From Tribonema minus (lineage: Eukaryota; Sar; Xanthophyceae; Tribonematales; Tribonemataceae), in contig JAFCMP010000301.1 of NCBI GenBank assembly GCA_017506865.1, forward strand, positions 434,001-498,000: 64,000 nucleotides of DNA, given 5' to 3'. This document shows, one piece after another, positions 1,923 through 63,170 of the stretch; the stretch's first letter is position 1; the number at the start of each line of letters is the position of its first letter. The notes beneath the pieces are model-generated. The model saw only the letters and a list, made by a program, of their open reading frames with translations. It searched no databases and was not told the DNA's origin. A program made the translations under genes and the position numbers.

Positions 1923-4900
1923 ATGGCGGCCTATCAGCCTCGTACGGTGCCGTTCGAGAAAGATCACGTGTATCTCTACACATACGGTCCGTCGCAGGCG
2001 GATGGCGCTTCTAAGCTACCTGCTACCCCATTCGGAGCTAAGGTGTGTCTTCAAGCTTGAGAAACAAGACTTGGCGTGGGGGCTCGCTGTTACAGCAAGT
2101 CCTCAAAGTGCAAGCTCCTCAACATAGTCACTGCTCTCTCATACCGCTCGTCTAAACCACCGAGAGCCTGCCTGCTATCACAGACATTTTTTTCTCTCGC
2201 TGCTTTGGAGTGGTACCGAAATGGATATTGCTGTGCTTGTTAGAAAGCCATTACTGCATTGATAATCAAGGTAGAGCCTGACGAAAGGTGATGCAGTGTA
2301 GGCCAATAACCTTTGGTGAGTTTTGCTTTCAACAAAAATGCTCAGGCTGGCTTCGACACACTGTGGAAGTACAGTTATTTCACCGTGCAGGATCAAGTTG
2401 TGCAGCTTACTTACGCAGGCTCATATCAGGTACACTTGACTTTCCAGTTCCCCCCCTGAGAATAAGTTCCTGTCCATTGTTGCTGCAACTTGTGAGTATG
2501 TCATGCAAAATGTTCAAACACCTAGTTTGGTTTTCCCTATCACACCACCATGGTTGCAATTGGTTAGCCAGCCGGCCGGAATTGTGAATAATTTTATTGC
2601 GTACCTGAGCTATACCTGGTGCCACAGTGCCGCTGCTTTGGCAGGTGGTCAACTTTCAAATAGCCATGCCAGGGCCAGGACATGGCGGTGCTACGGTGGC
2701 GTGAGGGCGGCCGCTCTGCAGTGGCTATGATGCCCTACGCGACTTGCAGCATACCATGTAGTACTAACTCTTGCACGCTCCTGTCAGGTTTGCAGGCGGG
2801 TTATGATTGGGCCCATCTCCATGACATCACAATCTGAGGTCCAACCCAATTGCTCTGAATTTGTGCCCGTGACGCACCGCTGTGCCATCATCTGATTCTG
2901 CAGCCCTGACAGCTAGTAGCAGGCACTTCAGGATGATCTCCTTGCACTGCAGTACGCAGACACCACTGAAGCCGCAGGCATGCAGTGCCTACGACTGCGT
3001 GTACCTCCCACTTCATCTACATAAAGCTATGTGTCCTATGCCGTACATTGAAGTCTGGAGCCACAGACATGGCATATCCTGGCAGTGCTCTCTGCACTGC
3101 ATGACCTGTTACCAGACCGACTGGCCCTCCCTGATCGGCCAACGAAATGCTGCCTCTTGCAGCCCAGTATTACCGTAATATACTTGTCCCACTAGGCAGG
3201 GCCTGTCGATCGCAATGCACAGCGCTGGCGAGAGTGCTGAGCATGTGCGCACCAGTACTATGTCCAAGCTTTTGAAGCTGGAGGTCTGGCTGCTCCGGGC
3301 AACGACATCCTACTTGCGCACTCCGTAGCGAAGGCCTCCAGGATTCGGGTTAGGGTTAAGGTTAGGGTCAGGATTAGGGTAAACCCTAACCCAGCTATCC
3401 CCCCGCGCCTCCATGCTGTCAATGACCGGGCCAGTAGCAAGTGGCAAGTGGTTAGCTTCTCTATGGTGACCTGAAAAGCGGGACAAAATGGCTGCCAGTG
3501 CCTCTCGGTCGCAATGCACTTGTATCCAGTCCTGCACTTCCGAAGAGTCACTGCTGCTCAAACGCACAGCCTGGTGCAGGGCTCCCTGCGCTCATGGCTA
3601 CCAGTAGCTGCTTTTCAAGTTAGTGCATACCGTAGCACGGTAGCGACCTCAGTAGCACGTCCCCGTTACTCATAATCAACTGCTCCCGCGAGCAATGTAT
3701 TCATTCTCCGATATATGCTGCCGTCTCATCCCGCTGCTGCTCACCGCACAGGTGGAGGCGTACCTGCGGTTGCAAGTAGGGGTCCGCTGCAGTCTTTGTG
3801 GCTTGTACGTCAATGGCTCAAGGCTGCTTATGTTCTGCAGTTGTATCCCTTCCTGCGCCCTCAGGCTACAGTTCACTGCTGCTCAAAGTTGCAGGTGCCA
3901 TATATTCATGCTCTGATGTATGCTGCCATCTCATCATGCTGCTGCCACCTTCACAGGTTGAGGCATACCTGCGTTTGACCAACATCCCGTTCACGGTAGT
4001 GTACGGCACGGTCGCCGGCCCCTTTGGCAAAGTCCCTTTCATAGAGCTCAACGGCGAGCAGCACGCCGACTCCAGCCACATCATCGACGTCCTCGCAGCC
4101 AAATTCGGCCACAATCTCGACCAGGGCCTCAGTGCTCAGCAGAAGGCCATCGGCCACGCGTTCCAGAGGATGGCCGAGGAGTCTCTATACTTTCACGTGA
4201 TCTACGCGCGCTGGGAAGATGATGCGGGCTGGGACAGCACCTTCAAGGCGTACATAGGGCACGCGGGCTTCGTGATGCGCTCCCTCTGCAACTACGTCCT
4301 GCGGCCCAAGTTCCGCAAGATCTGCGCGGCGCAGGTGCGTGAGTCTCTAGACAGAGTCTGACACAAAGTCCTAGTCAAAGTTCGCAAGATCTGCGCGGCG
4401 CAGGTGCGTAAGCCTTTGGACTCCGACTCAGAGTCGTACTCGTGTTGATGTAACTTGCTGTGCAACTACGTCCTGCGGCTCATAATCCGCAAGCTCTGCG
4501 CAGCGCAGGTGCGTGACTATCTGGACTCTGAGAGTCCTACTCGTGTTGCTGCAACTTGAAGTAGCAGAAGCCCCAACATGGCATACAGTGGCCACGCGGT
4601 ATTGCTGACTCGCCCCCAGGCTGTACACGGTTTCCTAGCATGAGCGTTTACACGGTTTCCTAGCATGAGCGTTTGCAAGATCTGCACAGCTCTGGTGCGT
4701 TCGGCTCAGAGCTCGTCGTTCACCACAGTGTGTGCGCACCTCAGCAAATCAATGTTGTCCCAGCATACTATGCTCCGCATGGAGTTGGGATGTCAAGGCT
4801 GAGCGCAATATGTTGTGAGTAACACGATCCCTGACGGAGGTGAAATCATGGCGTTGTTTCCCGCAAGGGTCATAGTAGACTGCATTGTATGCAGGCCCGT

Positions 4901-6242
4901 TACCCTTCATCTACAAACCATTTTATTTTTGGACACATGTTCGCCGACTTATAGCTGACCTCAACTACACATCACCGTGGAAGTCAGCACTTCGCTGCAA
5001 ACAAGGTTGGCTGTCTGAACCAAGGGACACTGTCTGAACCAAGGGACGTGAGAGTGGGCTGCTATAGTTCCTAGCCATGTACCACTAGTCTAGGACTTCA
5101 AGTGCGCACCGAGGAGGCCACCCATACTGCACTAAGTACAGCTTATAGGTGAAACTGGCTATACAGCAGGGTGCGACATTCGCTGCTCAATTATGAGCAG
5201 ATGCTGGAACTATTAGTGCCCACCACGGAAGCCAGCACATCAACTCTTTGCTGAGCTGGAATCTTGATCCAGATGGAACTGACTCTCTGCAGGGGCGACG
5301 ATGGGTATGTACCTCGCACTTGAAGACGTGGTGAACCCCTTCAGCATTGGCATGCAAGCCAATATGATGCTGCCTCGGCAAGAAGGACATGTGCCTTTAC
5401 GATAACGTCAGCTGCTGCTCTGACCTGGAATAGGAAGGCCAGTCACGCCATTAACCTGGAACAGGTGTCAACCCATTTGATTCTGCGGCAGGGTGCAGCA
5501 GCTCCTAAGACCAGAGTTTTGGCTGAGCATGGTGGCGGAATGCTTCGGCCAGTACGTGCAGGCCCTCAGCGTCTGCCTCAGCAACCAGTCTTAGTGTAAC
5601 TGCAATGGCAATGCTTTCACCAAAGCCATAAAACCACTTCAATGGTGATGCTTTGACCAAAGTCACTGCCACGCTTGTGTTGTTACATACGAGTGAAATA
5701 CAACCATGTATACTATGCTGCAGGGCACATTGACTTGTGGCTAGTTGCCGCAGCAGCGGCAACCACGGTTATTGGTGGAATGCACCAGCGGCTGGCTCAT
5801 CACACCTTGTCACCCAAGTAGAGCTTTACAATCTTTTGAATCGTTTCCATGCTGCAGGGCACGGGACGCTTTCCACCCAGCGTTGTGGTGGAGCGCTTTG
5901 ACCAAAGTCATATCGACACTTCAGTGGTGATGCATGCGTGTGTTCTTATGTACGGCCATGTACACTCTGCTGCAGGGCACGGGACGCTTTCCACCCAGCG
6001 TTGTCGTGGAACGCTTCGGCAAAGACATGCAGGCCCTCAGCGACTACCTCGGCGAAAATGACTTTTTGCTCGGGACAGCAGCGCCAACGACCGTCGACAT
6101 AGCGGTCTTTGGCCAGCTGGACTCACTCTTCAATGCCGGCGTCACAACCCTGCTCGACGAAAAGGTGGCCGAGTTCCCCACGCTGGCAGCATACGTGCAG
6201 CGCATAGCGAAGCTGGTGTTCCCGCCTGCAAGTGCCGCGTAA
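1923..6242 (+). CDS. FAXC/metaxin-type glutathione S-transferase-fold protein, three exons
   Basis: Exons 1923-2042, 3957-4334 and 5976-6242 all join in phase 0 and give about 254 residues. The start MAAYQPRTVPFEKD is the first ATG. The N-terminal thioredoxin-like half carries TPFGAKVEAYLRL, then PFGKVPFIELNG and ADSSHIIDVL, as in GST_N_4 proteins. The C-terminal helical half ends with YLGENDFLLGTAAPTTVDIA, the typical GST_C_6/metaxin pattern. The family covers failed-axon-connections homologues and metaxin relatives; some metaxins act in mitochondrial outer-membrane import, but most algal members are uncharacterised. The usual N-terminal active-site cysteine is replaced (TPFGAK), so thiol chemistry is unlikely. 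Both introns carry echoes of the adjoining exon edges. There is no signal peptide and no C-terminal membrane anchor is obvious. The frame and phase agreement make the model firm; the exact physiological role is unknown. Confidence 0.85.
3345..3394. repeat. Interstitial telomere-type repeat, head-to-head
   Basis: Several degenerate TTAGGG units run into aaaccctaaccc in the opposite orientation, giving a TTAGGG to CCCTAA junction inside an intron. It is short and imperfect. Confidence 0.85.
3683..3780 (+). repeat. Splice-edge echo of FAXC exon 2 (acceptor side)
   Basis: This segment repeats the last part of intron 1 and the first codons of exon 2. It has a polypyrimidine stretch, caccgcacag, then gtggaggcgtacctgcggtt, against the real tcacag|gttgaggcatacctgcg at 3951. 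After the VEAYLRL start the copy diverges (LQVGVR), so it is not a usable exon. A further partial copy of the upstream part lies around 3880-3930. Confidence 0.85.
4373..4702 (+). repeat. Splice-edge echoes of FAXC exon 2 (donor side)
   Basis: The end of exon 2 with its donor (cgcaagatctgcgcggcgcag|gtgcgt at 4315-4340) recurs at about 4381-4415 and again, longer, at 4455-4530, where the codons for LCNYVLR are also present. A weaker remnant lies at 4670-4696. A separate 26-bp tandem duplication (acacggtttcctagcatgag) sits at 4624-4676. The copies lie entirely on the intron side of the real exon end. Confidence 0.85.
5011..5050. repeat. Short tandem duplication in FAXC intron 2
   Basis: The sequence ctgtctgaaccaagggac occurs twice in a row. 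No function is suggested. Confidence 0.8.
5515..5935 (+). repeat. Splice-edge echoes of FAXC exon 3 (acceptor side)
   Basis: The acceptor and start of exon 3 (gctgcag|ggcacgggacgctttcc at 5969) are copied at about 5848-5910, including the codons for GTGRFPPSVVVERF, and more weakly at 5515-5585, where gtggcggaatgcttcggc and caggccctcagcg resemble codons further into the exon. A further fragment, ttcaccaaagccataaaac and gctttgaccaaagtca, lies near 5620-5665. Only the copy at 5976 leads into an intact frame. Confidence 0.8.
5738..5850 (+). repeat. Dispersed 110-150-bp repeat, copy 1
   Basis: Shares ccgcagcagcggcaaccacg and the downstream agagctttacaatcttttga with copies at 19321-19480 (opposite strand) and 27885-28020 (same strand). 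This copy is the most decayed; its reading frame is interrupted. Family not recognised. Confidence 0.7.
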
Positions 6243-10365: not shown

Positions 10366-13300
10366 CTACGACGAAACAGGGGCGGCGGTGGCGGCAGCGC
10401 CGGCGCCAGTCCCCGGCGCAGCAGCGCGCAGCGCTCTCACGCCGGCCGAGAGCGTCTTGTGCTTCTCTATCCTGAAGGCAATAGCGAGCTGCTTTTCTGC
10501 ATCTAAGCTCTTGCCCACGTTACCAGACAGTATGGCTGCGTCTTGGGATGGTGTTGAAGGCGCTTGTGCGAGTTCTTGTTCCGCGATTGCTGCCGCGAGG
10601 GCCCATGCCGCGCGTTCGTTGGATTCGCTGACTTGCGACTGCGGCGATGAAAGATATGAGCCAAAGACGCAAGCGCGCAAGGGAGGAAAGGTTGGTGCTG
10701 CAAGCCTCTTTGTGGTTCGCCCAGTCAGTAGCGGAGAGCCTGCTTGTGCAAAGCAAAGCAGTTGAAGTTGCTGTCGCTATGCCCATGTGTTCTGCTGATG
10801 GGGCAATGGAAGCAGAGCTCACAATGCAGAGGAAAAGTACAGACTCTTTGCATATGGCCAGAGCAACACATGCGTGACTTCAAAACCTTCTTGAAGGCAT
10901 ATGCTTGTACATGTCTGAGTCATTGGTGTGCGATCTGTGACCACTGCCACTGCCAATCACGTTGTGCGCTGACTCAGACTGTCCACTTGCAACCGTGACA
11001 GGAAGCGACGGTCAACCAGAAACGAGAAGAATTGAGAAATATGATGGGGGATGAGTGCTGCTGGCAACGTAGCCCGTCAGAACAAGCGGTTTCAATGACA
11101 TAGTCACACACTGCCCATGTTTTCTGGGGCACGTGGGCTTTGCATGACGCTGCGGCTCTTTCACATCATGAGGTGGCAGTTGGGCAAGGGTTACGGTTGC
11201 TTGTGGCGGCAGTGCGCAAAAGTAAATGAATGACGTGCAAGAGTGAGCAAGCGCACCACATAGGGTGTGGCCTTCACCGTAAATCACATCGCGCACAGTA
11301 CTTCGTTTCGTCCTTCACCATGTGCTACTTAAAACCCTGAATACCAAATATTGTTGATATCCTTGATACCTCCACGTCAATTAAATAACTCTCGTGTTGT
11401 CCAGCCCCAACGTATGTATAAATACATGCTTTTTTTCAGTGTGCATACATGTAGGTACCTTGAAGTCTTCAATGCCAATCTTGGCAGCCTTATCCGCTCC
11501 CAGCTCCGATTCATTGAGCGCAAGTAGCCTCAGAGCAGGCATGGCCGCCTCAGACTGTGGGAACTGCAAACCCTTCTTGCAGTACGTCAGGGTTTCGCCC
11601 CCCTTGGCCAGCCCTGATTTCTCTAGTATGGTGGCTTGGCTGGAGTCAAAGGACCCCGCTTCCGTCAGGTGCGCTATCGCCTGTGCGCACAATAAGGGGT
11701 CGCAGTAGGTTGTAGCAGATCAAGTCACGCCAAGGCTTGAATGAGTCTACATAGCCACATGTTCCCGCACCCAGAGCCTATGAGCCAGAAGAAATGACTC
11801 CTGAATGTATGCATCACTGCTCAAAGGGCTGGCCATCATGGCCCTTCAAGATGCACAGGGTAGGTTGAGGTGCTTCCACTGCTGGATTCATCCAGTATTA
11901 GTCACAGTGATTGCGGTCCTAGTTACAGCAGTGGCTTGGCTGCAGCTGCACAAGCGCATGCCCTGCCGCCTGAAAAACAAGATTTTCAACCCGCCACAGA
12001 ACTGAGAGTGGCTTATTCGCATACATGCATACATAGACTGGCAGGGACAGTGGTGTGATCTTTCGCAAATGCATGTTCTCAAACCCGTTGGCGGAGCTGA
12101 ACAGCACTTTTCTGGTGATTTTCTGGGTGTGTGCACAGTGAAGCGAATTACAGCAGCAGGACAGGCTTGGTATGGGTGCGTACAGCAAATGGCCATTGAG
12201 TTGCTGACCACAAGAAACTTTACTGAAAGCACTGTCAATGTGCATTGCTGTTCAGCACATACATTGTCTTGCAGCAGGAAGGTGACTTGCCCTTTGTCAT
12301 CATGTCGTCAGGTTCATGTATACATACACGCAGCAGCAGCAATAGTTTGTTACTGAGCCATTGGCGGAACTCTTTAGGTTGCAATCTGCCGCATCAGTCA
12401 TGTCGCTGCTACCATTTGCAGCGACCGACAAACTTGGTTCCATTCATGCATTTGTAGAAACACGTACCTTCGGTACCACGTCTTCGAGCTCATAGACGTC
12501 GTGCGGGTTGTCCTTCTCCACAAACCCGTAGTACTGCAGCAGGTGGTCATTGGACCGCTGGCCGTAGCTGATGAGAACCTCTGAACCTGGCGAGAAATCG
12601 CGTCCTGCCATGGCCCCAAATGCGTCGTAGAAGTAGTTGTACGCCACCTGCGTTATTAAGCAGCCATGTGCACAAGAATTGTTAGACGATCACAAGAAGT
12701 AGTTGTATGCCACCTGCGTTATCAAGCAGCGGTGTGCACAATAACCATTAGAGGATTGCGAGAAGTAGTTTGCCATAGCTTATGAGAACCTCCGAACCCG
12801 TGAGAAGTCGCGTCCTGCCATTGCCCCAAATGCATCGTAGAAGTAGTTGTATGCCACCTGCGTTATCAGGCAGCGGTGTGCACAAGCATCGTTGGAGGAT
12901 CACGAGACGCAGTTGTGTGCTACCTGTGCTTTCAAGCAGCCATGTGAACAAGAATTGTTAAAGGATCACGAGAAGTAATTGCATGCCACATGGATGCAGA
13001 GGAAGTGGCGCACACAAGCATCGTAATTCAGAAGTACTTGTTTGCCACCCGGTGCAGAGGCAGCGGTGCACAAGCAGTGTCAGAAGACCACGAGAGATAG
13101 TTGTATGCCACCTGAATGCAGAGGCAGTGGTGTGCACAAGCATTGTCAGAAGAACACGTGAAGTAGTTGCATGCCCTCTGAGTGCAGAGGCAGCGGTGCA
13201 CACAAGAATGATTATAATATCACGTGAGCGAGCTGCATCCTTCAATAGCGCAGTGCGCGAGCGGCGGTGCAAGCAAGGATCGCTAGAACAAGGATCGCTA

Positions 13301-16300
13301 GAAGATCACGAGAGCAAACTGCATCCTTCTGAGATGCAGGACTGTCCTGTAGCAGAGAACATGTGGTTGTAAGCAGTGCTGCACCAGACAAACAGACAGC
13401 CATCTACCGAAACAGTCACCATCCCGAAACGGTTACCACCATAGGACTTGGGACCGCAATCTCACCTCCCCCGACTCATTGCCACCATGGTTGGCAAGGT
13501 CGACGACAGGCGTGAGGGCATAGCGCCTCAGCCCAGCCATCTTGGACATGAAGAAGTTCAGCAGTGCTGCACAAACAGACAGTCATCTACCGAACAAAAA
13601 CAGTCACCACCATGGGACTGGGGCCACGATGTCACCTCCCCGGACTCATTGCCGCCGTGATTTGCAAAGTCAATCACAGGCATTGTGCGCACGTCGAGAG
13701 AAAAACTGCACCTGACAGTCAGGCTAGTGCGCAGGGTTAAACGGTACCAATCAACCTGTCAAAACTGGTTACCAACCAATACACTTATTAGTGTAGGCAC
13801 AATCTCACCTCCCCCGACTCACTGCCGCCGTGGTTGGCAAAGTCGATGACGGGCGTGAGGGCATAGCGCTTCAACCCAGCCATCTTGGACATGAAGAAGT
13901 CTCTGACTGGTATGCTAACCAGAACTGCCTGGAGTGACACCACGCACCATGTTCCACGGATAAGCAATAGACATCGCATTGACGCTTGATATCAGGTGAA
14001 TGGCACAGAGAAAATGCGTGCCTTGGTTGAGCACTGTTGCCAGAATATGCTGACCAACTCTCCCTAGAAAGGCACCATGCATAGAGCAGATGAAGGCAAA
14101 TGAGCGTGGCAGACGGCCCGGTGGTGGTGAACATAGCATCTGAAGTTCAAGAGGCGGTTGCTTCATCATGCCCCTGCTCACGAGCATGGCATTTTTGTAA
14201 AAATGATGCCATGATGTGTCATGCAAGTCATTGCTCAACAAGAAGTCAGTGTCATGGCATGCCGCCCGGAAGTGGTTGAACATAGCCATTGAAGTACAAT
14301 GGCGGTGGCCTGCGCTCACGAGCATGGCATGCTCAGAAGATGCCATGTGAGTAATGTAAGTCATTTTACGCAAATTCAGTATCGCCACGCTGCCTGATGA
14401 GAGGTGCACGGCACAAAGCCAGATCGTGTCTGCTGGTGCAGCCCCTTATGACTAGCACAGCCTATGCAGCGGATGACTCTAGCCATGCAAGTCATCATGC
14501 GTCAATTGTAAGACAGGGCTTGCACCAGGTAGGCAACTTCAACAGCAGCTTAAGGTAGCGCCTGCCAAGCAACTTCAAGCTCTCCCCAAAAGCAGAGCCC
14601 AAAGTGTGCGTGCGTGATACAACCTCTAAACATGCTAGCCAGCAATGTAACAACCTCACGTGAGGGTGTGTGTGTGTGGTGCAGGATGGTAAACGTACCA
14701 ACCAGGCTTTTGCCTCCCATGCAGACGCTGTTTGCGCGCATGTGCATGCGGCTGCGTAAAAGAATGCGCAAAGCCATTTGCCACTCAAATCGACCCCTTG
14801 CACTTGAGTGTGTGATTTGCATTCGCATAGCCATCTGCCACTCAATCTGACCCCATGTGCGTGCATACGTCACTCATGCAACACAAAAGTCTGGACTCAC
14901 CAGCCAACCATTGGCCACTTGATCGACGTTGCCCAGGCCTGCGGCCAAGTAGCCAGCAGCCAGCAGGCTGACAAAGGCCACCTCAGCAGCTCGTCCATTG
15001 GGGCCTCTGCCCTCATATGGGCCAGAGAAAGCTCGGCTGTGGCAGTCGAAGCAGTCGCATTGCGGATGCCACTAGTCGGTAAAAGACAGCGTGGATGAAA
15101 ATCAAATCAGCGTCTAACCCTAACCCAAAACCATTGGGGCCCTGGCCCTCGTACGGGCCCGAAAAAGCTCGGCTGCCGCAATTGGAGTGGTAGAATTGCG
15201 GTTACCACTGTTTGGATGCGGTAAGAAGACAACGTGAATGGAAGCTTTCAGGTGCACATCAAATCAGCGTCTAACCCTAACCCTAACCCTAAACCATTGG
15301 GCCCCTGCACTCATCCGGACCCGAGAAAGCTCGGCTGCGGCGGTTGAAGTGGTGACGTTGCAATTGGTCACGATCACTTGAAGAAAACATTGATGGCATC
15401 TGCTGACATACAGGCCTGAGAAGCTCGGCTGCGGCAGCGCAAGTGGTAGCATTGCGGTTGCCAAGGGTTAGGTTCAGTACCTGACAATATGGACGGAAGC
15501 TTTCAGGTGCACGCCATCAGCGTTGAGAGGTGCAGAGCGTAAAAAAACTTGAAATTCTAGGCAATCCACAGCTGACACACTTGGGTGATGAGCGCTTTTG
15601 AATGCAGAGTTGACCTCAAACGGAACCGCATGGCTAATTGCTGCATAATACCACGCCACATCCGGAATGCAAAACATCATTTGAACCTTCTAAGCCAGCG
15701 CCAGCAGTGTCATCAGCTTCCTCGACTTCGCCTCGTGCAGCTCTCTCTCTCTCCGTTAATCAATTGATGGGCCACAGTGAGCAGTGCGGCAGTATGATGG
15801 CTAGGATTAGGATAAGGGTTAGCATTCAAATTAGCACGATTTAGGTCAGGGTTGGGTCAGCAATCTGCTCTATTGGTTGAGCATCCAGACCCTCAGGGCT
15901 GATTCAAGTCGCGCAACTCAGGTGCAAGTGACATTGTGTCATACTAGCTATGTACTGCTTACAAGTACCTGTAAGCTATGCCCGTGGCCCAGTCAAGGTC
16001 ATCCTGCGTAATGCCCTTATCAAGGCCAACTTGTATTGATCACTGCATCAAAGGACCCTGATCATGAGGTCGATCCTAATATTGTGCATCTCAGCTGAAA
16101 TTGACGTTCCGTTTCACTAGTCCACTGCTCACAAAGTGCCTGTTCACAAAATACCTGTAAGCTATGCCCATGGCCCAGTTGAGATCATCCTGAGTGATGC
16201 CGTTCATGCCAGGACTGTCACTGGCCTTGAGCCTCTGGAAAATACCACTCCACTGCACACAATGACAAATGAAAAAGGCTCTTCAGTGCGTATCAATAGT

Positions 16301-19947: not shown

Positions 19948-19974
19948 CTGTAGTGGTACAGAAGGTGATGAAGT

Positions 19975-20285
19975 TGTGGTGGTACGCGTGGCGAAGGTGT
20001 ATAAGGCTACATGTGGTTATTCAATTGTGTAATTCCCTCGAGGGAGTAGACACAATATTCAAGTGCTCACAAGTGCTTCCGTGATGAACTCCTTGGCCCT
20101 GATTGCCCCCGTGGCGGCAACACCTGATGGTGATTCAGTAGGTGTTGAGGTTGTGTAAAAGGCCACATATGGTTATCATTACTAAAGGCTGTTGTGTGAT
20201 TACAGTACAGTGGTGTAGGTGGTGATTGCCGCATGGTGGCAACACTTGCAGTGGTGCAGCAGGTGGAGAAGTTGCGCCAGGTCAC
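19975..20285 (-). repeat. Splice-edge echoes of SET exon 19947-19862 (acceptor side)
   Basis: Two copies, at about 20083-20155 and 20205-20290, repeat the acceptor and first codons of the exon (plus-strand gtggcggcaacacctg, minus-strand cag|gtgttgccgccac). The first also keeps the codons for AIRAKEFIT with one codon fewer than the real exon. Confidence 0.85.
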
Positions 20286-37053: not shown

Positions 37054-37085
37054 TCTGAGACAAAGCACAGGTGATGTGAGCTCCG
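37054..37085 (+). repeat. Splice-edge echo of GDPD exon 36905-36990 (donor side)
   Basis: gagacaaagcacag|gtgatg and the following tgagctc copy the real agacaaagcacag|gtgatttgagctc at 36978-37000. Confidence 0.8.
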
Positions 37086-47292: not shown

Positions 47293-50200
47293 ATGGCTCG
47301 TACCAAGGTAAGACCCATTTTTTTTTGCAGCACGCACACCTTTTCAAAGACAGGCACTGCAGGGCGCACAGCCACGATAGTGAGCATGGCGCCCGCTAGG
47401 AATGCTTCCATTCGTTCAGGTGAGGCGTCAGGCGAGGCTGCCTGGCCCCCGTACAGCCGCCAGCGCGTGGATTCCACGTGATTTTCGCTTCTTTCGATTA
47501 ACCGCCAATTCTAGTTTGTCGTGCTCTCATGAAGCACGTCCGGCAAGGCCCTGGAGATCCTGGGTTTTATAGTTCATGCGCACCAGGAGGGGCCTGCTCT
47601 GGGCCTGTCTAAGCAGCTGCCCCGAGGTTCGATCTTTCGTGACCCTCAGCCGCTCCGTCCAGGGTCAGCTGTGTCATCGTAAACTCGTGGGGCGTTTGTG
47701 GTGTTCGATGGCGTCGGACAAGCTCTTGCTAAGCAGAATGACTGCGGTTGCGGTGCACGACATCGTGCTTGCCCAAGGACGCCTGAGGTTGCGACCAAAC
47801 CGCCAAATTTCAAATGAGGCGTTTGCGAACCTTGGATCGCGACTGACTTCGCAGCCTTCCACAACACACGTTGCCACTCAGATGTCTCAATGTCTAAGAA
47901 TGCCCCGCCTGCTTAAGATGCGGGCTCAAGCTTTGCGAGAAATGCCACTTCGAAATCTTTGACGCGAGTTTCAAGTTGCTCAACGAGCGCGAGTCTGGCA
48001 TTTAAGATACAGCCCTCTGCATTTGATTTCTGCAACCAGGAGCAGGTCGTGCCGAAACTTGGGCACCTGCAGCACTCTGCACTCAACTTTGCTGGAACCA
48101 TTTCGTTTGTGAGACCGCTTTGTGAGACCGCCAACTGCCAGAGCTGCTTTCCAGTTGCAAAAGCGTGACGTGATGAGAGGAGCCCCCTTCCTGAAAAATT
48201 GCGCGGAGGACACCAGCCCATTGAGCATTCTTGAGTCACCGCGGCTGGCATATCAACCCCTCCACCCCCCCCTCATTTTCTAACTCTACAAAATTGCCCA
48301 CCACTACTGGAGAAGCGTGAGGGGGAGGCAAAGGAGCCCACGGCCAAGAAGCCCCGCAAGGAGAAGGCGGATAAGGAAGACAAGATCCCCATTAGGCCCC
48401 TGTCCGGGTTCTTCCAGTTTGGCAAGTCCAAGCGCCCCGAGCTCATGGAGGAGTACCCTGGTGAGTTTATTCTCTAGTTTATTCTCGCCCCCTGACTCTG
48501 ATCAATTCGATTTAGTGTGTTGCATTTGCCACATTTATATTCCCGGTGAGGAATCTGCGACCTTCGCAGCGCCAGTTGCCTGGAGCCATGCACACTTTTC
48601 TGGTCATCTTTCGGTATGCATTGTAAGAATATGAGATGGAGCATGTGTGCACTGGATGTTTGCTCGCTCCAAAGGTGTACCCATGTTCGTTTTTGGTTTC
48701 TGGATTCAACATGGCAGCCACTTTCGCAGTGCGATGCATCTGTTCTCTTGGTCAGTTGATTGAAGTAATTCATAAAACCGACCCATAGGTACTGCAAAAC
48801 CATACATGTAGTTCCAGGATCAACATCGTGCATGGTATGAGGATCCCAAGTATGCTGCCGCCTTCGCTGCCCTTGTGTGAGTCTTCACATGCCAAGGTGT
48901 GTTGTGTGTCCTGTAATGCCAGTACATGTCTGAAAGCTTTTATGTCATGATCATCAATTATGATCTGCAAAATAACAAATCGATGGGCATCAGGGGAACA
49001 TGGATGCCATGACTCAACATCAGTCATTGAAAGCCCCAAGTCTGACAGCGTTGCGGAAGTGAAGCGCTGCAGGTTTTTACATGGCAAGTTGTGTCTCATA
49101 CAACATGGATGCCATGACTGGACAACAGGGTGTCAAGTCATCAAACCCAAAGTCTGACGGCAATTGAAAATTGAAGTGCTGCAGGGTCCCCAATCGTCCA
49201 AACTGGCTGCACCCAACGGGGAATGTCTGGCTCACTGTGTCACCCATCGCCTTGCGCCGACAACACTGCAAATGCCGTTCTTGATGTGGCACGTTGTTTC
49301 CTGCCAGGCTTGAAAGTGGGGGAGATCGGACAGAAGCTGGGGGAGCTCTGGCGTGAGATGGGCGACGACGAGAAGAAAGTCTACACAGATGAGGTAAATA
49401 CTGCCAAATCGACAGCTGGCCGCACCTTTGAGCTGAATAAGTGTGCCCCAAGCTCGCAAACTCTACAGTACTTGGAGCAGTGTCAACCTTTGTCATGTCT
49501 TGATGTGGCAGATTCCTCTACAGGATGCATACCCCCCCCCCCCCCCCCCGGGGCAATTGTGGCACCATTGCCAGTAAACATCATCGTCAGCTGAAGATAC
49601 CACACCACACCGCACCACTACACTCAATAGCTGACCTGAGTTGAATAACGTGGCCCCGGGCTTGCAAGCTCTACTTGGAGCAGTGGCGATGACTGCCATC
49701 TCTTTGCGTGGCAGATTCCTTCACAGGAAGCATACATACCCCCCCCCCCCCCCCCCCCCCCCTTTCTTCCCTTCTTGTCGTGGTCACGGGGTTGTGGGAC
49801 CATTGCCGGTGCTAAAAGTCACTCTCTAGCTTGGGAGAGGTTTTGTGGCGCCTGGCCGTGCAGTGCTGATAAATATTATGCGTCATATGACCATCATGCA
49901 GCAGATGCCGCTTGCATCCTTCAACAAACTTCAAGGCCCCTCTCCAGAACTTTATGGCAGCTGATTAGGGGGTTTATTGTACAGTGTTCCCACTGCCGCC
50001 AGCTTGTGTTCCCCACAGCCCACCTTGCATAACGTACTGTATACCCTTATCTGTAAGGCACACAGCTGCTATCAGTGTTTATGAGCACTGACAGGTTGGG
50101 CAGTGCCCGATGCTGCTCATGATGCCAGTCCTCTTATGGCAGGCTCATGGACTTTCAGTAGAGCACGGGCACTGAATTTGAGCACTGACTTAAGCAACCA

Positions 50201-51467
50201 AGGTTCACGGCACCTGATCATGATCAATCATGATTGACATTAGTCAATTGCTCACTAATCTCTTCGATTTCCATGTTGCAGGCACATGCGGATTGGGTAG
50301 CCAAGGGGGGTCCCGCTGCTGCTGCCGCGGCCAAGGAGGTCAAGGACGCTGCCAAGGCGACTGAGAAACAGGCAAAGAAGGACGCGAAGGCTGCTGAGAA
50401 GGTGAACATGCATTTGTAGTGCAGTAATATAGCTTGTCATCGGGCATTGTGAAAAGCCATTTTAGTGCTTTTCAAGCGCCCTTCATGTGTGACATGCTTT
50501 ATTAATACGTGTGCCTTTGCAAGTGGCCTGCTGAGCTAGTTGAAGTTGAGGCGGGAAGATCTCAAGCCGTTCAATCAGTGATGTGACGTCCAGTTTGACT
50601 ACATACATTGCAGGTATGCGGATATGCAGATATTTACACGTTTGAGAGTAGGTATGCTCAAAGTACTCGAGCTGCAGTGAGTGTGCATAGAAGGAGGCGG
50701 CAAAGAGTATGCAAAGAAGATGTGAAGTGTGAACACTAATGCACATTGACATATGCATGCACTCTGCAGTACTTGTGCTTACTTTTGAAGTGCATACGAC
50801 AACCCTAACCCTACTGTAACCCTAGGATGCGTCTGAGAAGTAGAGTGTTGACTTCTGTGCAGCTAGAAGAAAACAGGTGACGATGATTGCTGAAAGCCGT
50901 GGAGATGGCGAGCGAGCGCATTGGCATGCACATATGCGCAAAATAACTTGTCAAAAAGGTTGGCAATGAGGACCAGATTCTGTCGATGGTGATTGCATTG
51001 AACTGTTCTAATCTTGGGACGCATGTCCATATTATGGGCACCCTCCTGGTCACAGAGCACAGCAGCCAAGCTAGTGCCAACCATCATAACTAACACACGT
51101 GACGGTTTGCCCAGGTCTTAATGGCTCGTTGCGTCATTGACTGAAGCTTGCAGAAACAATTCAGAGGTCAACAAGGCAATTCTTACCAGACTATGTTAAT
51201 TTTGAGAGCCCACACCATTCATTTTTGCCGCCAACAGCAATTTGCTTGTAGCAATGCCATTTGAGCAAATTACTGTATCACTCACATTTGACTGTTACAT
51301 GCTGGCGGTTACAGGAGGCCAAGAAGGGGACCAAGAAGCCCGCGGCCAAGAAGGCGGCCAAGGCTGCGCCACCCCCCGCAGAGGAGGAGGAAGAGGAGGA
51401 GGATGAGGGGGGTGAGGATGCCGAGGGAGGGGAGGAGGAGGGGGGGGACGAGGACGACGACGAGTAG
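47293..51467 (+). CDS. HMG-box chromatin protein with acidic tail, five exons
   Basis: Exons 47293-47307 (MARTK), 48310-48460, 49308-49393, 50282-50401 and 51315-51467. Apart from the exon 2 acceptor (placed at ctggag|AAG), boundaries and phases are clear; the total is about 175 residues. A lysine-rich lead is followed by one HMG box: IRPLSGFFQFGKSKRPELME, EEYPGLKVGEIGQKLGELW and REMGDDEKKVYTDEAHADW, with the expected Pro, Phe and Trp positions. The tail is Ala/Lys-rich (KEVKDAAKATEKQAKKDA) and ends in an acidic run (AEEEEEEEDEGGEDAEGGEE). Single-box proteins with an acidic tail bend DNA and act in nucleosome remodelling, as HMGB and NHP6-type proteins do. The 15-base first exon is unusually short. 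A region from about 47100 with no other gene precedes the ATG and is probably the 5' UTR and promoter. Intron 3 carries a roughly 200-bp tandem duplication with poly-C. Confidence 0.88.
49420..49815. repeat. Tandem duplication with two long poly-C tracts in HMG intron 3
   Basis: Two units of about 200 bp share gctgacctgagttgaataa-like text, aagctctacttggagcagtg, gtggcagattcct and accattgcc. Each holds a long C run (about 19 C at 49531 and over 20 C from 49741). Confidence 0.85.
50797..50828. repeat. Degenerate telomere-type repeat
   Basis: acaaccctaaccctactgta and accctagg, in CCCTAA orientation, in HMG intron 4. Confidence 0.65.
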
Positions 51468-57882: not shown

Positions 57883-60800
57883 TTAAACCGTGGCCGAGGC
57901 GCTTGCACTGCTGCTGCGACGCACTTCCTCCTCGCACGCCGCAATGTACTGCTTGGTGCCGACAAAGCTCGCAATCAGGTTCTGGTCCAGCTGTTGTCAG
58001 CGAAGAAGAGCACGCCAGTGACTATGGTCAGTTGCTCGTTCCTTACAAACATGTGCATGGGTGATTACATGATATGTAATGCAGTGGATGTACCAGGCAG
58101 AGTCCGTTCATTAGCAAGAATGCTGCATGCTGACTTGATCCTCAAACATGCATCACCGTTTTGAAATGCATGCGCAATCAGATTCTGAATTCTGGTCCAG
58201 CTGTTGTCAGCGAAGAAGAGCACGCCAGTGGCTATGGTCAGCTACCTTGATTTACTTCCGCTCGAGGGGCGAAAACTTTTTTTTGGATAATGCAAGATAT
58301 GCAACTCTTGCGCTCGAGTCAAGCGTGTGCTCATGCGCTTTTGTGACTGCAATGGAACACAAGCGCCATCTACACTATTGGTCAGTTTTCTGCACAATTT
58401 TTCTGCACAAACATGTGGTGCTTGGTTACATGGCATGTTGTTCATCAGATGAACCAGGCGGTTGCCGTGCATAAGCATAAGCATAAGGATACTCCATGCC
58501 ACACACCAACAAAAGTGATGGGCACGCACCGTGCAAGCCACCCTTGCAGCTTCGCGTGTTCCTGCTGGTACTTGGTTGTGCTCATGGTAGGGCCGTTGTG
58601 GAAAGCACTGGACATGCTTTTAAAATGAAAACATGAACCGACACAAATCCGATCATGGGCACGCACCATGCGAGCCACTTCCGCAGCGCCGCATGTTGTT
58701 GCAAACACAACGACATACGACTCATGTGTAAGACCTGCTCATGTGGAAGACACTTCGCAAGTTCACCATGAACGGACGCATGTGATCAGAAGTTCAGAAC
58801 GACACACATGATAATATGATACTTGTAATTATATGGACGCACCATGCGAGCCACTTCTGCGGCGGCCTCCTTGAAGATGGTTCTGCGGGCCTCCGGTTCC
58901 AGCAAAATAAAAATTGTCTCGTCTCTGTACTTCATGATCTGCAGAGCATCGCAATGAGCACCAGGCGATATGTCTTGAGCGATGAAAAATCATATGGCTC
59001 TAGCGATGGAAAAAGCATCTCGTCTCTGTACTTCATGATCTGCAGAGCATCACAATGAGCACCAGCTGGCATACTTTGAGCGATGAAAGCCCGTTTTGGC
59101 ATCAAGCAAAGAGCAGGCATTCAGCACTCTATGTCGCCAATAAGGCTTGCGGCATGCAAAAGTAAGTGTGTTGTTGGTGGTCATGGCCCATATCGTATGA
59201 AGGCAGTTTCGCCAACAAGCCTGGTCGACCACATGCTTAACACGCAACAGATGTACAATATGTAAGTTCATATCATGTCAACAACCACTAGCGCCAGCAT
59301 TGGGCATCATTGCTCTGAATGACTGCTCCGCCACCAATGTTTCCAGCTAGCTTATTGATGTGCTTGTCAACCAGTAGCTGGCATACAGGACTGCCAATGT
59401 ACAGTGATGCAACACAAGCCGGATGGTGCAGAGCGCTGACGCAAGCAAACAAACTTACAGTTGACTAATTCAAAGTCTCGCCTCGTTCAGGTCAATGAGT
59501 GCTAAACCTGATTATCGCACATGTCACATCCACTCCACCCAAATATCATGTGACAGGTGCAGCGTTGTGACCGTGCTCTCACCCTGTTTCTCATAGCCGC
59601 ATTGATGTTGACCTGCACGCACAGCAGCACGCACAAATCGCAGCAAGTATGGCACAATTAGCACCCGTTACACTGTTTGCGGCGCTAGCTGTAACTGCCA
59701 GTTGCGGCGGTTGACACTCGTTTGCTTTGTCCCAGGTGGCCCTTGCGGCCACAAAGGACCGCATTTCATGTGCAGATGAGGACAAGGTCATGATGCAGCG
59801 CTACTCAGCGCGCTGCACTTTTCTTCGGGTGCGCAACGCAACAACCAAAGTCATCGTGCCCCGCATACATATGCCAGCGCAAGTGCTATTAGCAGGCACC
59901 CATGCAATATGCTCAGCCAGACAGCATGTGCAAGAAGGTGGCCATGGGATGAATCTGTGGAGTAGGCTGCATCAAAGCAGCGTCAGCGTATGGAGTGTGA
60001 GCATTGTGCTCCCGCTTCGCTCTCCCAGACAATCTTGCATAAAAGCAACAAGCGCCCATGTGGCAGTCATGTCACTGTGGTCTTCGCTCCAACGACAACC
60101 GCATGTTAACCCTGGTGCCTGATCAGCACGAAGGGCGCGCAATCCTTACCGATGGAATGTCAATGCAAACAAGATTGTTGGCAGCAGTGAGTCATGAGAT
60201 GCCAAACTTTGAATCCTCCTCACCTCAAATGTACTGTTCACAGCGATGCAGGTGGCCACCACTTTCTCGAAGGCAGCATACTGTGACAGCGGAGCAGCAC
60301 AAGCACAAGGACACAGTAGCACACGGAATAGAAGTCAACAAGAAGTCCCAAACGGCTCTGCGCTGCAGTAACATCACAGAGCGTGCAAGGGATTGTGCAT
60401 CACTCTGCCAGTTGTATAATGGGCCAATATGAATCGCCGCAGCCAACGGTGGGTCTCACGTTACGCATTGAAGAAATAAGTGTACCAGTCAGTCAAGGTA
60501 TACGCACGTACACCTCTGTGCTGTGGCTCACTGAGGGCCTTGGCTCCAAGGCAACCCAGGTGCGGCGCTGCTGCGGTAACTGTCTCGGCTACGCGTGCGC
60601 TCTGGCGCATTGTTTCGAAGCCTGAACTTAATGCCACACATAGCAGTATGCTTTTCCCTCGTATACGAAGTGGTTAGTGTTATAAGGACCTAACGACAGC
60701 AATGCCCTGCAGGTGCCCAATTGTCGTGGTCATGTTACAGACTATTCTTCAAGTGATATCTTCAAGTGTTGACGTGCAGACAAGGGGTCACGCTGAAGGA

Positions 60801-63170
60801 ACCTGAGTGGGGTCACTGATAACCTAGTGAGCTTGCACAGAGGCATCCCTCTCGTAAGCATTTGTGGCCAAGCTTCTGTCGTCCTACTGGACTGTTCGCT
60901 GATGATAGATTTAACCTACCCACGCCCCTGGATGGTCAGCTGTTACACAAGGCCGCCCCACAGTTGGCACGCTTGTCTCCTGCTGCTTGATGCTTGGGTT
61001 CTCATGCCATGTGCAGGAAAAGCGCAACAGGTTGACATGACAACTGCTATAGCAATGCCGTACTCTCACCAACTAACCTGCTCTTCTGGGTCCTCAAAGG
61101 CAGAGCTGGTGTAGGCCATGCTCTCGGCCAGGAACTTGTAGCTTTCGTAGCAAAGGCAGCGCTCCACATGCGCCGCAAACGCCACATTGAGAGCTGGCAC
61201 CTGAATCATGTCGATGGACGTTTTCCTGCGGCGCACGCAACAACTTGGCTTAGTTGTCATTGCGAGAAGTCATGCGAGCGCTGGGTTGAGAGGAACTTGC
61301 AGCTTTCGTAGCAGAGGCAGCGCTCTACGTGCCACATTTAGAGCTGGCACCTGAATCACGTCAATGGACGCTTTCCTGCACCGCACCGCAACAACTTGGT
61401 ATCAGAAAGGGTTTGCCTCTGCCGTGAATTGGAGTCAGTGAGTGACTGCGGTGAGTGAACGCAAGGGGTGGCTCAAACGGACAATTGCAAGAAGTCATTT
61501 GAGTGCTGGGTTGCGTCTGAACTATAATGTAATCCTACGCTTCATAGAGCAACTTCCGCAAAGCCAAGAAGTTGTACTGCTGTAGGCAAGTATTGGTAGC
61601 GGTCAGCGCAAACGACTCTCTCAACGGGCGCACGACATGCCCAACACGGTGTGTGCCAGCACTGCTTGAACGTTGTCGCGCGATTGACACAGGGTTAGGG
61701 TTAGGGTTAGGGTTAGGGTTAGAGGTTAGGGTTAGGGGTTAGGGTTAGGGTTAGGGTCAAGTTGGCCCGCATGTTCCATACTTTGAAGTACCTGTCAGCA
61801 CATGTACAAGCAAAATATCACCATTCTGCAATGTGCGGCGAAGCCAAAAGGTAATTTCATGCAAGTTGACCACTGAGCTGCGCATCCGCACTCACCACTG
61901 CTTGCTGTAGGTGGACACCTCCAAGCACGTCAGAGCAGCGCGCACGCTGCTGTTGAACCTCCACCTTCATTTCATAACTTTCAGCTATCGTACATGGCAA
62001 CACGGCACTGTTCTGCAATGTGCAGCGGAGCAAAGGCTAACGCCATGAAAATTGACCACTGAACTGCGCACTAATAAGCTCACCACTGCTTGCTGTAGGT
62101 GGACACCGCATCCTCCAAGTACGCCACGGCGGTGCGCACGCTGCGGTTGAACCTCCACCGCCCCTGCTGCTTCGGCTTCGACGTGCTGGCGGGGTCCCAG
62201 TAGCGGCGCGAGTAGTAGTTGACGTCCACGATGATGCTGAAGAAGCACACCATCAACAAAATGTGGATGCGCGTGTCAAACGGGATGATGTCGTTGAACA
62301 TGAGCGCCTCCAGAATAAAGTACGGCCCCGCGAACACGTAGAAGGCGGCGAGCGCGCGCCCGATCTCGTTGCCCATGCCGATGTTGTCCTGCGCCTCCGC
62401 CAGCCTCTTGATGAGCCACATGTAGGGGGGGGTAATGGAGAGCAGAACCCCCACCCAGAACGCCCAGGGGTAGTGTCCGATGCAGTACCCCTCCGATGAG
62501 GCGTGCTTGGTGCTCTGCAGGATGCCGGCCATGGCCGCCAGGCCGCTGACTGAGCCGATGATCACTGCTGCTTGGGCTCTGCCGTCGAGTATGAGGCCGA
62601 ACTTGTCGCGCCACTCCTTGGACATCATGACGAGCACCCGCATTCCCCTGCACACACAGTTGTAAGCAGAGCAAAAGAGTCAGCCCTGTTGTCGACCAGC
62701 CTGAAATGCTGTGTACCGCAGCAGCCTGTGACTCGGCATTACTGCAACAAAAGCAAGCGCGCAGTGGCCATCTTGTTGAGCAAGAAAGTCAGCGCTGCTG
62801 TCGACAAGCCTGACATGTCCAGCTGCTACCGCAGCAGCCTGTAGCACAGCGTCGTTGCAGCAGGAGTAAAAGCGTAGGGGCTGGCTTACCTGAGGACTAT
62901 GCCCATGATGATGCCGTTCGCCGAGAGGTACACCGCCCAAACCATGAGCCAACACGGCATGTGCTTTCCCTCCATGCGCATCATCTCCTGCACGCCCATG
63001 ACATCTGCCATCGCCAGCATCGAAAGGCACTCAACCATGGCTAGTGCGGGGGACCGCGCCCTGACCATCATGTCACGTCGTCGGCTCCACATGCTCGCCA
63101 TCCCTACTAGCGCGACAGCGTTGGCGATGCATGCTGCCGCAATCGCTAATGCCGTGTCGGTGCGCACCAT
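57883..63170 (-). CDS. Seven-transmembrane protein with C-terminal RGS domain
   Basis: Exons 63170-62890, 62647-62084, 61200-61078, 60280-60224, 59612-59583, 58938-58843 and 57990-57883. Phases agree at every junction except 62084 to 61200, where a short exon is probably missing (a candidate near 61590-61550 reads YNFLALRKLLYE). The start MVRTDTALAIAAACIANAV opens TM1. Seven hydrophobic segments follow, for example MVWAVYLSANGIIMGIVL, WAFWVGVLLSITPPYMWL, ALAAFYVFAGPYFILEALMF and ILLMVCFFSIIVDV. The RGS box runs from VPALNVAFAAHVERCLCYES through EVNINAAMRNRIMKYRDETI to MLDQNLIASFVGTKQYIAAC, ending ASASATV. RGS domains speed GTP hydrolysis by G-alpha subunits; the 7TM-RGS fusion is known from plants (AtRGS1) and protists and acts at the plasma membrane. 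The ligand is unknown. Introns carry exon-edge echoes and a telomere-type array. Confidence 0.88.
58150..58245 (-). repeat. Splice-edge echo of RGS exon 57990-57883 (acceptor side)
   Basis: ctggtccagctgttgtcagc through gaagaagagcacgccagtg is copied from 57983-58018, about 209 bp away, together with part of the exon start (caatcagattctgaa). On the minus strand the acceptor gacaacag|ctggac is retained. Confidence 0.9.
58515..58705 (-). repeat. Splice-edge echoes of RGS exon 58938-58843 (donor side)
   Basis: Two copies of the exon end with donor (plus-strand gcacgcaccatgcgagccac, real one at 58838-58853) lie at about 58656-58690 and 58518-58550. An acceptor-side echo of the same exon (cgtctctgtacttcatgatc, tgcagagcatcacaatgagc) lies at about 59020-59062, 110 bp from the real acceptor. 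Confidence 0.9.
61285..61405 (-). repeat. Splice-edge echo of RGS exon 61200-61078 (acceptor side)
   Basis: Repeats ggaacttgcagctttcgtag, the alternating exon codons and gagctggcacctgaatcacg with the upstream intron (tcaatggacgctttcctgc). The copy has lost a stretch from the middle of the exon start. Confidence 0.85.
61688..61760. repeat. Interstitial telomere-type array (TTAGGG)n
   Basis: About eleven units of ttaggg, nearly perfect, with one interruption (agaggttaggg) and one extra g. This is the longest array in the window and lies in an intron of the 7TM-RGS gene. Confidence 0.95.
61830..62083 (-). repeat. Splice-edge echo of RGS exon 62647-62084 (donor side), 190-bp unit
   Basis: A unit of about 190 bp is duplicated: it contains the exon end (plus-strand cttgctgtaggtggacacc), the donor (ctcaccactg) and about 70 bp of intron (gaccactgarctgcgca, ctgcaatgtgc). 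The first part of the copied exon tail (61920-61970) keeps ttgaacctccacc. This shows directly that exon tail, donor and intron start were copied as one block. Confidence 0.9.
62660..62880. repeat. Tandem duplication within the first RGS intron
   Basis: Two units of about 105 bp (gagcaaaagagtcagccctg and gagcaagaaagtcagcgctg, then taccgcagcagcctgt and tgcagca) fill nearly the whole intron between exons 1 and 2. Confidence 0.9.

What the first reader, a model, noticed from the sequence alone, without database searches (positions are those of the whole stretch)
1923..63170. Splice-edge echoes: exon boundaries with their splice sites tandemly copied into introns, in at least five genes
In FAXC, SET, GDPD, 7TM-RGS and probably the secreted-protein gene, the last codons of an exon plus its donor are repeated one to seven times downstream, and the acceptor plus first codons of an exon are repeated one to about ten times upstream. 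The copies are always on the intron side. The exon-attached copy alone has an intact frame and fitting phase, and copies generally decay with distance. Known models of intron gain involve tandem duplication across AG-GT sites, and many exons here begin with GT after cag and end with AG before gt. The inference is that introns in this genome lengthen by repeated tandem duplication across exon edges, leaving arrays of decoy splice sites.
Basis: partly seen in the sequence, partly recalled or inferred. Interest (0 to 1): 0.87.

Follow-up and report, generated by a model that had tools for sequence, protein, structure and literature searches.

The report
Exon edges copied repeatedly into introns
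In this stretch of an unnamed eukaryote's genome, about half of the examined exon ends have decaying copies of themselves, splice site included, in the neighbouring intron, which suggests that introns there grow by repeated local duplication anchored on exon edges.

Summary
I rebuilt five spliced genes (FAXC/GST, LSMT-type SET, GDPD, 7TM-RGS, HMG-box), each open and matching Pfam. Of 48 splice edges, 24 have a copy in their own intron (19 strong); 0 of 48 in the intron beyond the exon; outside these genes 3.8% of noncoding positions have such a duplicate.

Local repeats are direct only (79 pairs against 0 inverted). Copies decay as neutral copies of a constrained original. Simulated uniform duplication predicts a dip at edges; the data show a peak, fitted by a 6- to 8-fold preference for edge-crossing events.

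So introns here partly lengthen by local duplication anchored on exon edges. Not borne out: AG-GT intron gain (0 of 22 introns), a uniquely intact exon-attached copy (32 of 43 copies keep an open frame), consistent decay with distance, the secreted-protein gene. The HMG gene has none (0 of 6). "Always on the intron side" follows from splicing logic. Known kind, unusual density and edge preference; four of the five genes were chosen for echoes, so the rate may be inflated.

The parts
1923..6242 (+). FAXC/GST-like gene, exons 1923-2042, 3957-4334, 5976-6242
   Evidence: open spliced frame; Pfam GST_N_4 1.4e-27, GST_C_6 7.5e-14
3692..3772 (+). copy of the acceptor edge at 3957
   Evidence: 82.9% identity over 82 columns with 3897-3977; edge score 56
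4335..4705 (+). three copies of the donor edge at 4334, nearest one head-to-tail (70-bp step)
5490..5975 (+). copies of the acceptor edge at 5976 (about 5704 and 5850 crossing the edge; 5526 exon part only)
10366..19947 (-). SET / Rubisco-LSMT-type gene: 19947-19862, 17253-17104, 16252-16155, 15036-14901, 13928-13809, 12647-12468, 11680-11459, 10638-10366
   Evidence: single open frame; Pfam Rubis-subs-bind 7.7e-9, SET 0.0037 (below Pfam cut-off)
20075..20275 (-). one clear and one weak copy of the acceptor edge at 19947
   Evidence: edge score 65
15963..16018 (-). copy of the donor edge at 16155
   Evidence: 85.7% over 56 bp
15110..15535 (-). array with three copies of the acceptor edge at 15036
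13370..13681 (-). two copies of the donor edge at 13809; the farther is 92% identical over 101 bp, the nearer 84% over 57 bp
12648..13240 (-). 66-bp / 210-bp tandem array carrying at least seven copies of the acceptor edge at 12647
   Evidence: TRF
29860..36990 (+). GDPD gene with hydrophobic N-terminus: exons 29860-30169, 31371-31468, 34279-34451, 35660-35762, 36905-36990 (5' start and further 3' exons not resolved)
   Evidence: open frame with consistent phases; Pfam GDPD 3e-11
29350..29745 (+). three copies of the acceptor edge at 29860
30325..30635 (+). three copies of the donor edge at 30169
31530..33140 (+). seven copies of the donor edge at 31468, split by about 950 bp of unrelated sequence (31650-32605)
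33585..34278 (+). tandem array (about 124-bp unit) with five copies of the acceptor edge at 34279
   Evidence: TRF 5.8 copies including the exon
35763..36020 (+). two head-to-tail copies (about 98-100 bp) of the donor edge at 35762
   Evidence: TRF
37058..37083 (+). short copy of the donor edge at 36990
   Evidence: 96% over 26 bp
57883..63180 (-). 7TM-RGS gene, seven exons; first exon start uncertain
   Evidence: open frame to a stop; RGS domain 1.2e-4, 22.9 bits against a cut-off of 23.9; '7TM' from hydrophobicity read by eye
61838..61965 (-). copy of the donor edge at 62084
61291..61399 (-). copy of the acceptor edge at 61225
59010..59088 (-). copy of the acceptor edge at 58938
58530..58688 (-). 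one clear and one weak copy of the donor edge at 58843
58190..58241 (-). copy of the acceptor edge at 57990, 98% over 52 bp but 158 bp away from the original stretch
48310..51467 (+). HMG-box gene, four exons (first exon start uncertain): 0 of 6 edges copied
   Evidence: open frame; Pfam HMG_box 5.6e-16

Best explanation
Local direct duplication of stretches of roughly 40-200 bp recurs in this genome. When the stretch spans an exon-intron junction, the gene keeps working only if the outermost donor or acceptor is still used, so the other copy lies in the intron and decays as neutral DNA (shown by the mismatch pattern; site use itself is inferred). Edge-spanning events are over-represented about 6-8 fold against uniform placement (shown by simulation, model-dependent). 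The most likely reason (inferred) is that the conserved exon edge is a lasting anchor for slippage or unequal exchange: exon sequence hardly drifts, so an old intronic copy stays alignable with it and keeps seeding new copies, giving arrays. Intron-internal pairs diverge on both sides and fall silent. The net effect is intron growth from the edges inward.
For: 24/48 edges against 3.8% of outside positions, 0/48 far side. Edge peak of 0.50/0.40 (scores 29/40), against 0.26/0.16 at 200-500 nt. Uniform duplication gives 0.14-0.16 and 0.10-0.13 at the edge, a dip; a 3-fold preference is too little (P=0.002 and 0.0075); 6- and 8-fold fit (P=0.41, 0.69). Growth from short introns by uniform duplication gives edge/far ratios 0.74-0.92, observed 2.55. 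Direct 79, inverted 0 repeat pairs (distance under 1500, ankyrin, telomeric and a few other listed regions excluded; pairs are not independent events). Mismatches: codon positions 1+2 106/1215 (8.7%), splice dinucleotides 6/100, against position 3 128/599 (21.4%) and intronic sites 245/1260 (19.4%): one-sided against two-sided decay, as expected of a neutral copy of a constrained original. Higher-order units (66 within 210 bp; about 100 within 181 bp) and the SET copy that is more like the exon than the nearer copy is point to exchange within arrays. Of the 19 edges scoring 40 or more, 12 have two or more copies (FAXC 4334, 5976; SET 19947, 15036, 13809, 12647; GDPD 29860, 30169, 31468, 34279, 35762; RGS 58843; the second copy is weak at SET 19947 and RGS 58843) and 7 have one, near the 5-6 expected for all edges under uniform placement (my tally).
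Against: No transcript or polymorphism data: which sites are used is inferred from frame, phase and Pfam continuity. One window, five genes, four chosen for echoes; the one added without regard to echoes (HMG) has none. Several single, well-preserved copies are not adjacent to the original (158 bp between at 98% identity; 150 bp between at 96%), which plain tandem duplication does not give without later insertion or conversion. The anchor idea was not itself simulated; an intrinsic hotspot would fit as well. Simulation parameters (unit lengths, mutation and indel rates) are assumed. Two growth-from-short simulations do reproduce the edge fraction (P=0.96 and 0.31) and fail only because they give too many interior duplicates and shorter introns (medians 432 and 454 bp).
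Confidence: 0.7

Rival explanations
1. Exon-intron boundaries are intrinsic breakage hotspots (for example through R-loops, polymerase pausing or the GC step), and break repair by short-range synthesis copies the adjacent edge into the intron.
For: Non-adjacent yet well-preserved copies resemble the closely linked repair-mediated duplications of primates (PMC2671141, passages read), which include intron splice sites. Some edges without a crossing copy have near-edge intronic duplicates: 5 of 23 at +60 nt. At score 29 wholly intronic probes 40-80 nt from edges exceed far ones (0.361 against 0.259).
Against: Only direct copies, 79 against 0 inverted. At score 40 the near-edge excess is small (0.181 against 0.155), and with 40-nt probes it is small or reversed (0.243 against 0.217; 0.153 against 0.166). 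The primate set has 4 partial exon/intron donors among 824.
Confidence: 0.2
2. Plain neutral local duplication, uniform along introns; edges only look enriched because exon sequence is conserved and because young introns were short.
For: Local duplicates also occur inside introns and between genes; constraint on the exon does slow divergence of the pairs; two growth-from-short simulations reach the observed edge fraction.
Against: Uniform duplication with exon constraint at steady length gives 0.16 at edges at score 29, observed 0.50 (P(>=24/48)=6.8e-8); an earlier version gave a mean of 10.6 of 48. The growth-from-short versions give edge/far ratios below 1. 9 of 11 echo-bearing introns of the first 18 are less than half echo (regions mapped by hand).
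Confidence: 0.15
3. Selection favours extra splice-site copies (decoys or backup sites that recruit splicing factors).
For: Copies keep GT or AG in most cases: 6 mismatches in 100 dinucleotide bases; in a first set of 42 copies, 81/84 bases kept against 744/900 for neighbours within 12 nt, p=0.0003.
Against: The dinucleotide mismatch rate does not differ from codon positions 1+2 of the same copies (6/100 against 106/1215, p=0.46), as constraint on the original alone predicts.
Confidence: 0.07
4. The copies are alternative or mutually exclusive exons.
For: 32 of 43 copied exon parts are open; one SET copy is 92% identical over 101 bp with donor and frame kept.
Against: Copies mostly carry one edge and part of the exon; the third-position excess is 2.45-fold, close to the 2-fold expected from one-sided constraint; the acceptor-like site before the best SET copy has the wrong phase (read by eye).
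Confidence: 0.04
5. Assembly artefact.
For: Tandem repeats are assembly-prone (general knowledge).
Against: Copies are 66-98% identical with a codon-position pattern; misassembly gives near-identical copies.
Confidence: 0.02

Closest known systems
Intron gain by tandem genomic duplication across AGGT (reviewed in PMC3443670, passages read; potato RdRp case PMC4974935, search listing only)
   Same: Local tandem duplication in genes, with duplicated splice-site sequence and removal of the extra copy by splicing
   Different: There a duplication inside an exon creates a new intron whose two ends resemble each other. Here existing introns are lengthened and the two ends of the same intron do not resemble each other (0 of 22)
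Internal tandem repeats at exon-intron boundaries of human segmental duplications (PMC2812944, passages read)
   Same: Repeat arrays straddling an exon-intron boundary that change intron structure; 27 intron modifications there
   Different: Recent and in primate-specific paralogs; here 24 of 48 edges, mostly decayed copies, with the reconstructed coding frame intact
Repair-mediated proximal duplications (PMC2671141, passages read)
   Same: Short-range non-tandem duplicates up to 619 bp, some including splice sites
   Different: That set excludes tandem copies, and 4 of 824 donors are partial exon/intron; here edge-anchored, direct only, often arrays
Introners and transposon-made introns (PMC9860276, search listing only)
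   Same: Mass change of intron content
   Different: Edge copies of different genes showed no similarity to each other in the window self-search (E up to 1e-3)

Membership tests
Intron gain by tandem genomic duplication (AGGT model) | Start of intron resembles start of next exon and end of intron resembles end of previous exon | tested here: not met
   0 of 22 introns with donor-flank against acceptor-flank score of 29 or more (largest 28); mean 15.1 against 15.9 for cross pairs. Old gains could have lost the likeness
Intron gain by tandem genomic duplication (AGGT model) | AG before and GT after both splice junctions | tested here: inconclusive
   16 of 23 exon ends AG, 7 of 25 exon starts GT; no excess control made
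Exon-edge tandem repeats (as the human ITRs) | Repeat units include the exon-intron boundary | tested here: met
   50 listed copies aligned; all 50 alignments cover the splice dinucleotide (copies were listed because they cross the edge)
Exon-edge tandem repeats (as the human ITRs) | Head-to-tail arrangement | tested here: inconclusive
   Clean arrays at SET 12647, GDPD 34279, GDPD 35762 and the later GDPD 31468 copies; others spaced
Repair-mediated proximal duplication | Captured segment not adjacent to its template | tested here: inconclusive
   True of RGS 58190-58241 and several others, not of the arrays
Repair-mediated proximal duplication | Breakpoint microhomology or filler | not tested
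   No empty-site relative available
Introner | Same element in introns of many genes | tested here: not met
   Edge copies have no dispersed matches in the window; apart from ankyrin genes, telomere-like and C-rich runs, two dispersed elements appear (5730-5851 with 19334-19463 and 27904-28014; 34675-34768 with 24361-24444 and 26407-26470), neither being an edge copy

The most novel reading that the evidence does not exclude
In this lineage conserved exon edges act as permanent seeds for local duplication, so that edge-anchored echo arrays are a main route of intron growth: introns grow inward from both splice sites and carry a decaying record of their own history.
Probability: 0.45. Interest if true: 0.78.

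Novelty: new variant of a known kind. Interest (0 to 1): 0.63.

Why it matters
How introns become long is usually put down to transposons and slippage (general knowledge). Here the length gained carries the exon's own sequence, so each event can be dated and polarised: the exon-attached copy is the original, and at constrained sites only the copy decays. A genome like this would allow a direct measurement of intron growth, of how the spliceosome ignores many near-identical decoy sites, and of whether exon edges are mutation hotspots. It also warns gene annotators that partial exon copies with good splice sites can be mistaken for exons.

Tried and rejected
Whole-genome test: not possible; the genome is not held or laid. 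Relatives: the 7TM-RGS exon in viral contigs and genome contigs and the FAXC exon in viral contigs gave no encoded relative, so there is no orthologous-intron comparison. Rfam: 0 matches at gathering thresholds. Growth from short introns looked at first like a sufficient neutral explanation; simulation disfavours it, though two versions reproduce the edge fraction alone. A first exploratory simulation gave edges about equal to interior; refined it. Whether AG-GT edges are preferred targets was looked at only by eye. The apparent extra conservation of splice dinucleotides vanished when compared with codon positions 1+2. The exon-midpoint control planned did not run (script error); the offset profile replaced it. 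Searches ended in script errors after printing the results that I use; the edge test meant for one search was run. The edge set grew from 36 to 48 when the coding scan added SET and GDPD exons; no edge was dropped. SET acceptor 13902 was moved to 13928 for phase, which also removed the single far-side match; HMG edges were moved by 1-2 nt. In one search, 7 of 50 copies had fewer than 15 copied exon bases and were left out of the open-frame count (43). Literature: ten searches (CC-licensed PMC papers only; one search listed nothing) listed no paper that, from title and abstract start, describes splice-edge copies as a common mode of intron growth; most listed papers were not opened. PMC11782384 (direct repeats of 4-30 bp near splice sites; abstract only) concerns repeats shared by the two ends of an intron, a different thing.

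Full report
What was checked. The window is eukaryotic DNA, about 53% GC, with TTAGGG-type interstitial repeats. No own genome is held, so everything rests on the 64 kb. A self-comparison shows many direct repeats at 60-600 bp spacing.

Gene models. I located exons by coding score, reading the sequence and phase. Five spliced genes result, each in one open frame over the exons listed (FAXC and RGS; SET, GDPD and HMG): a GST/FAXC-like protein, a SET protein of the Rubisco-LSMT type, a GDPD with a hydrophobic N-terminus, a 7TM-RGS protein and an HMG-box protein. Pfam: GST_N_4 1.4e-27 and GST_C_6 7.5e-14; Rubis-subs-bind 7.7e-9 with SET 0.0037 (below its cut-off); GDPD 3e-11; RGS 1.2e-4 (22.9 bits, cut-off 23.9); HMG_box 5.6e-16. 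The used splice sites are inferred; there are no transcripts.

The copies. A 60-nt probe on each of 48 splice edges was aligned to up to 1 kb of its own intron. 24 of 48 reach score 29 or more, 19 reach 40, 17 reach 50; donors 12 of 23 and acceptors 12 of 25 at 29. Five of the 24 are weak (29-33). The same probes against the intron on the other side of the exon: 0 of 48. In an earlier run it was 1 of 36, for a SET acceptor then placed at 13902; at 13928, where the phase fits, the match is gone. Noncoding positions outside the five genes: 3.8%, 1.9%, 0.9% of 2365 positions. Intron positions including the echoes: 20%, 12.4%, 8.0% of 2650. Random draws of 48 positions, from outside or from introns, did not reach the observed numbers in 20,000 tries. 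By gene: FAXC 3/4, SET 8/15, GDPD 8/10, RGS 5/13, HMG 0/6; 16 of 26 introns (some known on one side only) have at least one, and 8 of 22 two-edge introns have both; intron bootstrap interval for the edge fraction 0.32-0.67. On the first 18 introns the echo regions that I mapped make up 4252 of 19472 bases, from 0 to 78% per intron; intron positions outside them have duplicates at 8.9%, 2.8% and 1.0%.

Why only the intron side. A duplicate across a donor leaves two donors. If the outer one is used, the mRNA is unchanged and the other copy is intronic; if the inner one were used, the exon would grow. The rule is therefore expected of any surviving duplicate and is not evidence for a special mechanism.

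Neutral decay. Over 50 aligned copies, mismatches between exon original and copy are 56/607 and 50/608 at codon positions 1 and 2, 128/599 at position 3, 245/1260 at intronic sites 8 nt or more from the site, and 6/100 at the splice dinucleotides. Position 3 matches the intronic rate (p=0.35), and the dinucleotides match positions 1+2 (p=0.46). This is what results if the original is constrained and the copy is free. An earlier comparison of the dinucleotides with mixed neighbours (81/84 against 744/900) looked like selection but is explained by this. 32 of 43 copies keep an open frame over the copied part, so the statement that the exon-attached copy alone is intact does not hold. Decay with distance is negative in 5 of 7 families of three or more copies, clear in two, positive in two.

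Is the edge preferred? First, within introns the fraction with a duplicate peaks at the edge (0.50 at score 29, 0.40 at 40) and is 0.26 and 0.16 at 200-500 nt. Second, a simulation of uniform tandem duplication with exon constraint, tuned to the interior level, gives a mean of 10.6 of 48 edges at 29 or more, and 24 or more in none of 20,000 sets. A second version with the full offset profile gives 0.16 at the edge at score 29, a dip rather than a peak (P=6.8e-8); a 3-fold preference still gives too little, 0.29 (P=0.002). Third, letting introns grow from 120 bp by uniform duplication, with or without unrelated insertions, gives edge/far ratios 0.74-0.92 against the observed 2.55. Two of these three versions do reach the observed edge fraction (P=0.96, 0.31), but with far too many interior duplicates and shorter introns. 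A 6- to 8-fold preference for edge-crossing events fits (P=0.41, 0.69; ratios 2.00, 2.38). On a pure hotspot the data are mixed: wholly intronic probes 40-80 nt from edges exceed far ones at score 29 (0.361 against 0.259), hardly at 40 (0.181 against 0.155), and with 40-nt probes 0.243 against 0.217 and 0.153 against 0.166. The excess lies mostly in multi-copy edges (12 of the 19 edges at 40 or more, two of them with a weak second copy; my tally), while single-copy edges (7) are near the uniform expectation of 5-6 for all edges.

How it probably works. Local repeats are direct only: 79 pairs at 35 bits or more, 0 inverted (alignment pairs, not independent events; ankyrin, telomeric and some other listed regions excluded). 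Head-to-tail arrays with higher-order steps occur at SET 12647 (66 and 210 bp) and in the later copies of GDPD 31468 (99 and 181 bp); plain arrays at GDPD 34279 (124 bp) and GDPD 35762 (98 bp). This points to slippage or unequal exchange. My reading (inferred, not simulated) is that the conserved exon edge keeps old copies alignable and so re-seeds duplication. Some single copies are not adjacent to the original (RGS 58190-58241, 98% over 52 bp with 158 bp between), which needs later insertion, conversion or short-range repair synthesis; that is the chief loose end.

Comparison. Tandem duplication as a source of introns is established (PMC3443670, passages), but its mark, similarity of the two ends of one intron, is absent here (0 of 22). 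Repeats at exon-intron boundaries are known in human segmental duplications (PMC2812944, passages). Repair-mediated duplicates are known in primates, with 4 partial exon/intron donors of 824 (PMC2671141, passages). I found no paper describing the pattern as a common mode of intron growth in the ten searches, judged from titles and abstract starts, in a library that lacks most subscription journals. I rate it a new variant of a known kind.

Noticed in passing
window 5730-5851, 27904-28014 (+), 19334-19463 (-): A dispersed 110-130 bp element present three times (77-85% identity). In FAXC intron 2 it sits between two acceptor-edge copies, and the same 14-bp stretch including the acceptor lies on both sides (5715-5728 and 5849-5862, its only two places in the window).
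   Followed up: partly
window 31650-32605: About 950 bp of unrelated sequence splits the GDPD donor-edge copies; an 8-bp word lies on both sides (31636-31643, 32608-32615), but it occurs four times in the window with 2.7 expected, so it is weak evidence for an insertion.
   Followed up: partly
window 34675-34768, 24361-24444, 26407-26470: A second dispersed repeat of about 65-95 bp; one copy lies in GDPD intron 34452-35659.
   Followed up: no
window 22751-24424 and 25379-26970; 38193-39513 and 41487-42613: Paralogous pairs of ankyrin-repeat genes (LQWARANGCPW-type repeats) with their downstream regions, 69-85% identity; they look intronless.
   Followed up: no
window 3347-3392, 15270-15295, 20775-20836, 61691-61757: Interstitial telomere-like TTAGGG repeats, several inside introns.
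   Followed up: no
window 19862 (-): The first SET exon found appears to end at a GC donor (CAG|gcaagt); phase fits.
   Followed up: no
window 13457-13557 against 13800-13900 (-): The farther SET donor-edge copy is closer to the exon (92%) than the nearer copy (84%), although both copies share downstream sequence; suggests gene conversion or exchange with the exon.
   Followed up: partly
window 48997-49185 and 49429-49755: The HMG gene's introns have internal local duplications that do not reach the exon edges.
   Followed up: partly
window 43966-45435 (-): A 489-codon open frame rich in Ala, Ser and Gly with strong coding score and no Pfam match at E 0.1.
   Followed up: no
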